Source: Pyrodictiaceae archaeon (GTDB lineage: Archaea; Thermoproteota; Thermoprotei_A; Sulfolobales; Pyrodictiaceae). From it: 64,000 nt of DNA. Shown piece by piece: positions 23,306-31,219 of the stretch. The stretch spans positions 314,880-378,879 of the forward strand of contig JALVSY010000007.1 of assembly GCA_027036135.1 (NCBI GenBank), written 5' to 3'. The notes beneath the pieces are model-generated. The model saw only the letters and a list, made by a program, of their open reading frames with translations. It was not told the origin of the DNA and made no database searches. Each line of letters begins with the position of its first letter. The stretch's first letter is position 1. The translations under genes and the position numbers were made by a program.

Positions 23306-23737
23306 TTGGGCACCGGGATACGAGAGTTCTCTTCGGCGCAGGAACTACTCCGATTTATTGATGCACAGCTAACGGATCTTAGGAAGACACTAGGTGATCT
23401 TCTTAGAGTCATCGAAGAGCTTAGGGCAAAAAGTGAACTAGATAAAAGGATCCGTGAGCTACTACTAAGGCTAAGCAAGCAAGGAGCCGGAGAAAGTAGC
23501 GCAGAAAATAGGCTAGAGATTGTAAAGCTGGGAGACGCGATTGAACTCGTTATTAATCCGTCACCATCAGTTGAGCTCCGCTACTTGGAGGACCTGGCCG
23601 AAACAATAAACAAGAAGATAGCGAAGCTCCAAGCCGCTAGGAAAGGTGTTGAACAGCTTGCCGAGATAGGTCTCGAGGCTAAACTTGACGTTATACTCGT
23701 AGACGATGTTCCAATAACCATATTTATAAAATTCTAG
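23306..23737 (+). CDS. Hypothetical coiled-coil protein
   Basis: A 143-residue soluble protein, not recognised. Residues ~10-65 form a charged heptad-like coiled coil, then come two short beta stretches (LEIVKLGDAIELVI; LDVILVDDVPITIFI) around a second helix (about 95-125). The start is TTG 23306. The gene lies 94 bases after the large surface protein in the same direction and ends three bases before a perfect 56-bp palindrome. Confidence 0.65.
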   Translation: MGTGIREFSSAQELLRFIDAQLTDLRKTLGDLLRVIEELRAKSELDKRIRELLLRLSKQGAGESSAENRLEIVKLGDAIELVINPSPSVELRYLEDLAETINKKIAKLQAARKGVEQLAEIGLEAKLDVILVDDVPITIFIKF

Positions 23738-23739
23738 TC

Positions 23740-23795
23740 ATTTTTATTGAATTATATCTATACCATGCATGGTATAGATATAATTCAATAAAAAT
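23740..23795. repeat. Perfect 56-bp palindrome (two 28-nt arms, no spacer)
   Basis: The left arm 23740-23767 is the exact reverse complement of the right arm 23768-23795, meeting at CCATG|CATGG with no loop. The arms are AT-rich. It begins three bases after the stop codon of the coiled-coil gene and ends 70 bases before the flippase gene. As DNA it can extrude a cruciform; as RNA it would form a 28-bp hairpin. Possible roles are transcript 3'-end processing, a protein-binding site, or the scar of a mobile element. Confidence 0.97.
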
Positions 23796-23865
23796 ATGAT
23801 ATTACTGCTGGTCACATCATCGATTAACCTATCGAGTCCAGCAACGGTGAGGAGAACTGCAATTA

Positions 23866-24789
23866 ATGAAATACATTATCGAAGGAATCGCAACAATAAG
23901 GTCTGCCAACTTATACTATTTCCTCATAGCGCTTGCAGTTTACTTATTATCTGTATTATTATATGCACTAAGACTAAAAATTATTTTAAAAAATATTTAT
24001 ATAAAAATATCTATTTTAGATGCGATAACTGCACAGTTTCTAACAATAACTGTTAATAATCTAACACCCAGCGCTAAAACAGGAGGAGAACTAGCCAGGG
24101 CTGCCTACGTCTATGCAAAAACTAAGGCATCATTGGCTAATATAATCACTGCTATTGTGTTTGAGCGCTTAAGCGAGGCATTTCCAATTACCGCATTAGC
24201 TCTTATTGCTTTCTACGCTACTTTAATATCTCATAGAGTTAGTATATATGTTATTGCCGCCGTTATGCTCCCAGTGCTAGGAATAATTCTTGGAATTAAA
24301 TACTGGGACAAGTTCATGGAATATTTGCTAAGAAAGAGTGAGGAAAGAGGATTAACACTAATTAACGAGGAAGAAGAACTAACTTCTCTTAAAGAGATGA
24401 TGAGGAATTATAAGCTTCTTTTACTGGCTATTGGACTTAGCTCCTGCGTATGGGCTCTTGATGTGTTACGGCTATATATAATAGGATTATCTGTTGGCTG
24501 GCATGCACCGCTATTTAAATTTATGCTCTTAAGTGTATTTTACCTAATAATAGGATTATTTGCCATAACACCGGGTGGCTTAGGTATAGTTGGCGGTGGT
24601 TTAACTGCCGCACTTGTTGCACTCGGAGCACCAGCTAATAAGGCAATAGCAATAACAATTATAGAGAGACTTATATCTTATGGCATTGCTACGCTAATCG
24701 GGGGTGTCGTTGCCACACTTACTGGAGGATGGCAGGCATGGAAACTCTTAAGATTGCGCTGGCGTCGGACTGGTTCTACCCCAAAATAG
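23866..24789 (+). CDS. Flippase-like/UPF0104 (LPG synthase TM-like) membrane protein
   Basis: A 307-residue protein with about eight membrane helices and the NNLTPSAKTGGELARAAYVY motif (about residues 62-80) typical of the UPF0104/AglD C-terminal/LPG-synthase transmembrane family. A second typical stretch is TPGGLGIVGGGLTAALVALG near residue 240. Members are proposed to move lipid-linked substrates or phospholipids. GGTGAGGAG ends about 12 bases before ATG 23866. The following glycosyltransferase gene overlaps its 3' end, so lipid-linked glycan handling is likely. The first half of the gene is noticeably AT-rich. Confidence 0.82.
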   Translation: MKYIIEGIATIRSANLYYFLIALAVYLLSVLLYALRLKIILKNIYIKISILDAITAQFLTITVNNLTPSAKTGGELARAAYVYAKTKASLANIITAIVFERLSEAFPITALALIAFYATLISHRVSIYVIAAVMLPVLGIILGIKYWDKFMEYLLRKSEERGLTLINEEEELTSLKEMMRNYKLLLLAIGLSSCVWALDVLRLYIIGLSVGWHAPLFKFMLLSVFYLIIGLFAITPGGLGIVGGGLTAALVALGAPANKAIAITIIERLISYGIATLIGGVVATLTGGWQAWKLLRLRWRRTGSTPK

Positions 24790-25976
24790 GTGGCATTGAG
24801 ACTCATATACAAGAGCTAGCTTATAACCTTTTAAAGCTTGGTCACGAGCCCCACGTAATAACTCATGATTATCGTAAATTCCCCTCTAGATTTGAAGATA
24901 ATTTCCCTTTTCCTGTACATAGGCTTAAAGGCGAAATATACAATGCTAAGGAACATGTTAGTCTAGGTGTTTTGCTAATTCATCAAGCAAACAAGCTATA
25001 TAAGAAAGAGAAATTTGATTTGACACATATACATAGCATTTACTCGCCTCTCGGCATCCTTGTAGCTAATGTCTCAAGAGGAGTACGCGGTGTCCCAGCA
25101 ATAGCAACTAATCACTCATTCTTTGAATGGGATCTAAGGCGTGAACTCTGGCTACCCGTGCTAAGATACGCACTAAAAAGAATTGATGCCATAATAGCTG
25201 TCAGTAGAGCTGTTGCACAGGACGTGAAGAAGGTAATTAAGCATAAAGATAAACCTATCTATATAATCCCTAATGCTATTGACATTGGTTTTTGGAGGCC
25301 CCCTGACCACGAGGAGCGAGTAAAGGCTCGGCGAATGATAGGGGCTGAGCCTTTCGACTTTGTTGTTTTTGCACCAGGTCGTTTCACTGAGCGAAAACGT
25401 ATACACGAGGTTCCGCGTATAGTTGCTAATGCATCACGTCTCCTCGGTCCCGGGAAAAGGCGCTTATACCTCGTAATAACAGGCGACGGCCCATTAGCTG
25501 ATAAGGTTAGGGACGAGGTCCGGCGTTATTCGGATCTAATAAGAGTCCATCTTAACGGGTTTGTTGATAGAAGAATGATGCGCAACTACTACTGGGCGGC
25601 CGACCTCACTATAGTCCCTTCAAGGCTCGAGGCATTCTCGATAACCGCTCTCGAGTCTATGGCGTGTGGAACCCCTGTAATAGGGTATAGGGGTGGTGGT
25701 ATAGAGGATCTTATCCTTGACTCCATAACCGGGTTCCTAGTGGGAGACGATAGAGAGGCTGCTGAGAAGATAGCACTACTAGCAATGAATGATGGCCTTC
25801 ATGCTAGTATGAGGGATAAAGCGCCGTATCATGTAGCGAAGAATTTTTCGTGGGATAAGGTGATTTACTGGATACTCGACGTGTACAAGACTGTAATGGA
25901 CTCAGCTAATCCCGAGGAGAGACTATTCCTCCTATACAAGGCGTGGCTAGGGCTGACGAGGCCATGGAGAAGATAG
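24738..25976 (+). CDS. Glycosyltransferase family 4 (GT-B fold)
   Basis: A retaining GT4-type sugar transferase of about 412 residues. The N-terminal Rossmann half begins SDWFYPKIGGIETHI with the donor/acceptor glycine loop. The C-terminal half has APGRFTERKRIHE, then the E-x7-E motif EAFSITALE followed by the nucleotide-sugar-binding CGTPVIGYRGGG. It resembles the PigA/PIM-mannosyltransferase group. ATG 24738 is preceded nine bases upstream by GGAGG and is preferred over ATG 24729. It overlaps the flippase gene by 52 bases and the deacetylase gene by 13, forming one operon. Confidence 0.9.
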   Translation: METLKIALASDWFYPKIGGIETHIQELAYNLLKLGHEPHVITHDYRKFPSRFEDNFPFPVHRLKGEIYNAKEHVSLGVLLIHQANKLYKKEKFDLTHIHSIYSPLGILVANVSRGVRGVPAIATNHSFFEWDLRRELWLPVLRYALKRIDAIIAVSRAVAQDVKKVIKHKDKPIYIIPNAIDIGFWRPPDHEERVKARRMIGAEPFDFVVFAPGRFTERKRIHEVPRIVANASRLLGPGKRRLYLVITGDGPLADKVRDEVRRYSDLIRVHLNGFVDRRMMRNYYWAADLTIVPSRLEAFSITALESMACGTPVIGYRGGGIEDLILDSITGFLVGDDREAAEKIALLAMNDGLHASMRDKAPYHVAKNFSWDKVIYWILDVYKTVMDSANPEERLFLLYKAWLGLTRPWRR

Positions 25977-30662: not shown

Positions 30663-30989
30663 ATGATAACAAGCCACGAGGAAGCACTACGAGAAGCAGA
30701 GAAATGCATGTACTGCGGCTTCTGCGAAGCAGTCTGCCCAACAATAACACATGGACCACACCGGGGCTACGGGCCACGAGGAAGAATACAACTAATAAAA
30801 ACAATACTAACCCAGGAAAACACAAGCAAAGCTGTCATAGACTCAATCTACACATGCACACTCTGCGCAGCATGCATAGAAAAATGCCCAGCAAAAGTAA
30901 ACATAATAGACCTCATAATATACGCAAGAAGTACAATAATATATGAAAATGGCAATAAACTTATCGAAATCATGCACAAGGATGTATAG
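30663..30989 (+). CDS. Short dicluster 4Fe-4S protein (GlcF/HdrD N-terminal part)
   Basis: A 108-residue protein with two 4Fe-4S binding motifs, CMYCGFCEAVCP (about residues 15-26) and CTLCAACIEKCP (about 65-76). These match the N-terminal ferredoxin part of the GlcF/HdrD Fe-S subunits. Those normally continue for another ~280 residues with two cysteine-rich CCG domains, which are absent here; downstream DNA is 97% AT for 60 bases and shows no remnant. It is either a dedicated ferredoxin-like subunit or a gene truncated at the edge of the accessory island. Only about 8 of 108 codons end in T. Confidence 0.82.
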   Translation: MITSHEEALREAEKCMYCGFCEAVCPTITHGPHRGYGPRGRIQLIKTILTQENTSKAVIDSIYTCTLCAACIEKCPAKVNIIDLIIYARSTIIYENGNKLIEIMHKDV

Positions 30990-31219
30990 CACTAAACCTT
31001 ATTATATTAAGATAATATAATATTATATTTTATTAATTATAATTTCTTTCTTAAAAATATTTATAAAATAATTAATAAAATATAAACCAAAATAAGTATA
31101 TAATGTAACTATTTGAATGCTAAATGCTTTCCTGCAACTGTGTCTTAAAGAATTAACCAAGCAAAGCTTAAAAATGTTTATACTAAATATGAAAATGTAA
31201 AGATGGTGATAGAACAACC
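30990..31219. other. Very AT-rich intergenic segment
   Basis: No gene supported. 31021-31080 holds only two C and no G. A 16-bp palindrome lies at 31014-31029. A TATA-like TTAAAAATGTTTA near 31168-31180 may drive the 89-residue gene. The segment could act as an easily melted region. Confidence 0.5.

What the first reader, a model, noticed from the sequence alone, without database searches (positions are those of the whole stretch)
23740..23795. Perfect 56-bp palindrome with no spacer
Seen: two 28-nt arms are exact reverse complements meeting at the centre, three bases after a stop codon and in the middle of a same-strand gene series. Perfect palindromes of this length are unstable and rare unless selected or very recent. 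Inference: it may be a cruciform-forming regulatory or protein-binding site, an RNA hairpin insulating the surface-protein genes from the glycan operon, or a mobile-element footprint.
Basis: partly seen in the sequence, partly recalled or inferred. Interest (0 to 1): 0.7.

Follow-up and report, generated by a model that had tools for sequence, protein, structure and literature searches.

The report
Recent perfect palindrome at import junction
A real, perfect 56-letter DNA palindrome sits in one archaeal species exactly where a roughly 900-letter stretch of DNA from a more distant relative begins, so it is best read as a recent copying scar of DNA exchange rather than as a control element.

Summary
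The window is from a Pyrodictiaceae archaeon. The arm occurs nowhere else in its genome, in 19 family genomes, or (19-mer core) in viral contigs. Three congeners keep the same two genes around this gap without the palindrome, in gaps of similar length (115-143 vs 122 bases), so it is not a simple 56-bp insertion. Against the closest congener, G003, the locus is colinear for 12.4 kb at about 90% identity, except two blocks. The larger starts at 23740, the palindrome's first base, and ends near 24615 (65% identity). Inside it G003 groups with G002 rather than with our genome, and GC drops to 36% (44% in G003). Our genome therefore most likely imported this block. Best reading: a young palindrome made by fold-back (template-switch) copying at the left junction of an imported tract, probably without a selected role. 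The terminator, operator and mobile-element readings each fail a test (U-run on the wrong side of the stem, no second site, no conservation, no target-site duplication). The fold-back step itself is inferred; one arm could not be shown to be ancestral.

The parts
23740..23767 (+). left arm (28 nt) of the palindrome; holds T5 at 23741-23745
23768..23795 (+). right arm (28 nt), exact reverse complement of the left, no spacer
23759..23776 (.). central core TATACCATGCATGGTATA; single site in 19 family genomes at up to 2 mismatches; ATGCAT at the centre could have primed a fold-back (inference)
23306..23737 (+). upstream gene, 143 aa, no Pfam match; 93% nt identity to G003, i.e. the normal background
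23740..24615 (.). block A: tract divergent from nearest congener G003 (65% id against 90-93% around it), probably imported into this lineage; its left edge coincides with the palindrome's left edge
23796..23856 (+). rest of the gap / leader; GGTGAGGAG ribosome-binding-like motif just before a CTG shared with G002 and G003
23857..24789 (+). downstream gene, LPG_synthase_TM (PF03706); likely CTG start at 23857 (first ATG at 23866)
24998..25286 (.). block B: second divergent patch (74% id) inside the glycosyltransferase gene

Best explanation
The palindrome is a young mutational product with no demonstrated function. The lineage of this archaeon replaced about 0.9 kb (23740 to about 24615) by the homologous stretch of a more distant congener. 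At the left end of that tract, in the gap where host and donor share no usable homology, one strand probably folded back at the self-complementary centre (ATGCAT), copied about 28 nt of itself, and the copied end was joined to the host sequence two bases after the stop codon. That gives one perfect inverted copy with no spacer, starting at the junction. Shown: palindrome, uniqueness, absence in congeners, tract borders, topology switch. Inferred: import into this lineage rather than into G003, and the fold-back step. It may incidentally affect termination of the upstream mRNA (U5) or the promoter of the glycan operon, but nothing indicates selection for that.
For: Perfect and unique. Absent in three congeners with the same flanking genes, whose gaps are of similar length. 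A two-state segmentation of the G000-G003 alignment places the border at 23739/23740. Four-point bootstrap: G000+G003 300/300 in each undisturbed flank tested but 23/300 in block A. Protein tree of block A: G003+G002 together (96/95), G000 outside; AU test rejects G000+G003 (p 0.028). Four-fold-site distance to G003 is 0.195 upstream and 0.935 in the block gene. GC of the block gene is 36% in G000 and 44% in G003, while the upstream gene is 46% in both. G003-G002 distance in the block (0.298) is as in the flanks (0.20-0.34), so G000 is the more likely recipient. No mismatch in 56 bp bounds the age to under about 0.053 substitutions per site at 95% if neutral. The three other outlier palindromes (16-17-bp stems) have unrelated sequences and lie in DNA with no counterpart found in the genus, one of them inside a 901-codon frame, which points to a mutational process. 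Fold-back and template-switch copying that makes perfect stems in one step is documented elsewhere (PMC8794818; PMC10622511, abstract).
Against: Neither arm aligns to a relative's gap better than shuffles, so one arm could not be shown to be the ancestral template. The palindrome may have come ready-made in the donor DNA. The gap is the only long intergenic stretch of this locus, so palindrome and junction could coincide by chance. The DNA tree of first and second codon positions gives the same topology but does not reject G000+G003 (p 0.22).
Confidence: 0.5

Rival explanations
1. The palindrome already existed in the donor lineage's intergenic region and came along with the tract; the junction lies just left of it by chance.
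For: The divergent tract includes the whole gap and leader; G001 has an imperfect inverted repeat of its own in the same gap (14-bp arms, 0/200 shuffles as good).
Against: No genome searched carries it; perfection requires recent origin or maintenance in the donor too; exact coincidence of edges is then accidental.
Confidence: 0.17
2. A selected RNA hairpin that ends or protects the upstream mRNA, or insulates the downstream glycan operon.
For: RNA stem of 26 bp, -30 kcal/mol at 37 C, z -11.9; starts 3 bases after the stop codon; T5 on the transcript, and U-tracts are the archaeal termination signal (PMC8716108).
Against: T5 lies before the stem and A5 after it, not the hairpin-then-U order; archaeal terminators do not strictly need a hairpin (PMC8716108); predicted stability -1.1 at 90 C and 0 at 95 C, whereas the window's tRNAs keep -7 to -9 at 90 C; no such stem in G002 or G003.
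Confidence: 0.11
3. An operator for a homodimeric regulator of the downstream operon.
For: Two-fold symmetric site upstream of the leader of a glycan gene set.
Against: The 18-bp core occurs once in the genome and in none of 18 relatives at up to 2 mismatches; it is absent from orthologous gaps; no regulator gene is among the five neighbours scanned; 56 bp far exceeds a usual dimer site (general knowledge).
Confidence: 0.08
4. Footprint or remnant of a mobile element.
For: Palindromic, AT-rich (18% GC) in a gap otherwise 45% GC; lies at the edge of probably imported DNA.
Against: No second copy in genome, family or viral contigs; no flanking target duplication; gap hardly longer than in G001 and G002.
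Confidence: 0.05
5. Assembly or amplification artefact.
For: Draft assembly in 40 contigs; reads not available.
Against: Both flanks run on into the correct orthologous genes with no inverted copy of them, unlike a fold-back misassembly.
Confidence: 0.05

Closest known systems
Replication template-switch mutations that create perfect stems (PMC8794818)
   Same: One event makes an adjacent perfect reverse-complement copy, which explains a stem with no mismatch and no conservation in relatives.
   Different: Described there on RNA-gene phylogenies with reconstructed ancestors; here the ancestor could not be reconstructed and the site is at a probable recombination junction in an archaeon.
Fold-back priming at double-strand breaks / inverted duplications in yeast (PMC10622511, PMC7467729; abstracts only)
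   Same: A free DNA end folds back as a hairpin and copies itself, giving an inverted repeat at a junction.
   Different: Those are chromosome rearrangements in yeast mutants; here 28 nt, and only the product is seen.
Mosaic allelic replacement between related prokaryotes
   Same: Sharp borders of divergence in an otherwise colinear locus and topology switch in block A.
   Different: One border carries a perfect palindrome.

Membership tests
template-switch / fold-back palindrome | adjacent exact reverse-complement copy | tested here: met
template-switch / fold-back palindrome | absent in close relatives, recent | tested here: met
template-switch / fold-back palindrome | one arm matches the ancestral sequence, the other is new | tested here: inconclusive
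   neither arm beats shuffles against three orthologous gaps
allelic replacement tract | sharp borders of divergence in colinear DNA | tested here: met
allelic replacement tract | topology inside differs from the flanks | tested here: met
   bootstrap; AU p 0.028 on protein; 0.22 on codon positions 1+2
bacterial-type intrinsic terminator | G+C-rich stem followed by U-run | tested here: not met
   18% GC stem, T5 before and A5 after it
archaeal U-tract terminator | U4 or longer tract downstream of the stop codon | tested here: inconclusive
   T5 at 23741-23745 present; no RNA 3'-end data
regulon operator | further sites in the genome or conserved orthologous site | tested here: not met
mobile element / MITE | repeated copies | tested here: not met
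mobile element / MITE | target-site duplication | tested here: not met
   flanks AATTCTAGTC / ATGATATTAC

The most novel reading that the evidence does not exclude
In this archaeal lineage, DNA import or break repair often ends by fold-back self-copying, leaving perfect loopless palindromes as scars that mark junctions of foreign DNA genome-wide.
Probability: 0.15. Interest if true: 0.6.

Novelty: new member of a known kind. Interest (0 to 1): 0.36.

Why it matters
It turns an apparent regulatory element into a probable scar of recombination. If the link between perfect palindromes and borders of imported DNA holds in more genomes, such palindromes would be readable marks of how hyperthermophilic archaea join foreign DNA ends. 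Otherwise it is an ordinary, recent, probably neutral mutation.

Tried and rejected
Learning a promoter (TATA) motif from upstream regions failed: no positional AT signal, probably because mechanically called gene starts are unreliable. Looking for a quasi-palindromic precursor in relatives: none in G002 or G003; G001 has an unrelated imperfect repeat. The first alignment of the gaps used two loci in the wrong orientation and was replaced; the repeat searches in those loci were repeated on the right side. DNA hairpin energies above 60 C from the DNA parameter set were not sensible and are ignored. The first run of the topology script stopped on a saturated distance and was finished. Paper searches on archaea with perfect palindromes or template switching found nothing.

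Full report
What is there. Window 23740-23795 is exactly its own reverse complement, 28 + 28 nt with no spacer and no mismatch, and the next outward bases do not pair. It begins three bases after the stop codon of a 143-aa gene (23306-23737) and lies in the gap before a same-strand set: a LPG_synthase_TM membrane protein, a family-4 glycosyltransferase and a polysaccharide deacetylase. At the arm's own composition about 5e-7 such palindromes are expected in a 2.2-Mb genome.

Organism and background. The window's genome (G000) has 2.2 Mb in 40 contigs. In 1.264 Mb of it, perfect stems with loops of 0-4 nt fall off as chance predicts to 11 bp; then four outliers stand apart: 16, 17, 17 and 28 bp. 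Samples of three relatives (0.8, 0.4 and 0.4 Mb) reach 14, 13 and 13 bp. The three other outliers have unrelated sequences. One is inside a 901-codon frame, one overlaps the 5' part of a long frame, and one lies some 220 nt after a tRNA-like stretch. None of these stretches has a counterpart in the relatives searched beyond the tRNA, although several of those genomes are incomplete drafts.

Uniqueness. The arm has no further copy in the genome, none in 19 other family genomes (one search lists 20 with our own), the 19-mer core none in viral contigs, and the 18-bp centre no second site at up to two mismatches in the family.

Relatives. Three congeners (G001, G002, G003) keep the same two flanking genes. 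Their gaps (115, 116 and 143 bases from stop to start, against 122) hold no such palindrome. So 56 bp were not simply inserted: sequence was replaced. Neither arm resembles a relative's gap better than shuffles, while the 64 bases after the palindrome do resemble G003 and G002. The start of the downstream gene appears to be a CTG after GGTGAGGAG in G000, G002 and G003.

The unexpected part. Against G003 the locus is colinear over 12.4 kb at about 90% identity, but a block from 23740 to about 24615 falls to 65% and a second, 24998-25286, to 74%. The left border found by a two-state segmentation is the first base of the palindrome. Four-fold degenerate sites differ by 0.195 in the gene before and 0.935 in the gene after the border, so this is not selection on the protein. 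In the flanks G000 and G003 are sisters in 300 of 300 bootstraps; in the block in 23 of 300. With outgroups, the protein tree of the block joins G003 and G002 (96/95) and leaves G000 outside; the G000+G003 clade is rejected at p 0.028 with protein, not with codon positions 1+2 (p 0.22). The block gene is 36% GC in G000 and 44% in G003, while the upstream gene is alike, and the G003-G002 distance in the block is what the flanks show. The simplest reading is that the G000 lineage received the block from an unsampled congener that branched off earlier; import into G003 is less likely but not excluded.

How the palindrome arose (inference). A homologous exchange needs matching sequence at both ends. 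The right border lies at the start of a stretch conserved in all species (85-92% identity, 24650-24799, where two genes overlap). At the left border G000 has no detectable homology with the relatives' gaps. An end that cannot pair there may fold back on itself at the self-complementary centre and copy about 28 nt before it is joined to the host strand. This predicts a perfect, loopless palindrome whose outer edge is the junction, which is what is seen. Fold-back and template-switch copying are documented in other organisms (PMC8794818; PMC10622511, abstract). The coincidence of the edges is suggestive only: roughly 3% if four borders of about 100 bp each are set against 12.4 kb (my estimate), and less striking because this gap is the only long one in the locus.

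Age. No mismatch in 56 bp means fewer than about 0.053 substitutions per site since formation at 95%, if neutral. That is younger than the G000-G003 split as measured at four-fold sites (0.195 between the two, about 0.1 per lineage).

Function. The RNA stem is strong at 37 C (-30 kcal/mol) but is predicted to vanish by 95 C, when the window's tRNAs still hold -5 to -7 kcal/mol. Cultured members of this family grow best near or above that range (general knowledge; the growth temperature of this species is not known, and cellular salts and solutes could shift the value). The order T5-stem-A5 is not that of a hairpin terminator; archaeal terminators are U-tracts that do not strictly need a hairpin (PMC8716108), so the T5 could serve as a weak terminator whatever the palindrome does. 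No conservation and no second site speak against an operator.

Verdict. The locus adds one good example to a known kind of mutation and links it, tentatively, to the edge of an imported tract.

Noticed in passing
23740-24615 and 24998-25286: Mosaic blocks strongly divergent from the nearest congener in otherwise about 90% identical colinear DNA; block A probably imported into this lineage.
   Followed up: yes
23857-23859: The LPG_synthase_TM gene appears to start at a CTG codon after GGTGAGGAG; CTG is the only NTG codon near the 5' end in G003, and a CTG stands at the same place in G002.
   Followed up: partly
31023-31085: Perfect 18-bp inverted repeat with a 27-nt spacer, very AT-rich, in a non-coding stretch after ORF 30663-30989.
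   Followed up: no
L049 13606-13640, L076 4399-4432, L088 7664-7696: Three more outlier perfect palindromes (16-17-bp stems, loop 0-1) of unrelated sequence in genus-unique DNA of the same genome; the one in L076 lies inside a 901-codon frame.
   Followed up: partly
L013 (G001), orthologous gap: Imperfect inverted repeat CTTTACTGGCAAGG..CCTAGCCAGTATAG, better than all of 200 shuffles, in the same gap of another species.
   Followed up: partly
2363-2467: tRNA found by Rfam but missed by ARAGORN (105 bases), perhaps with an intron.
   Followed up: no
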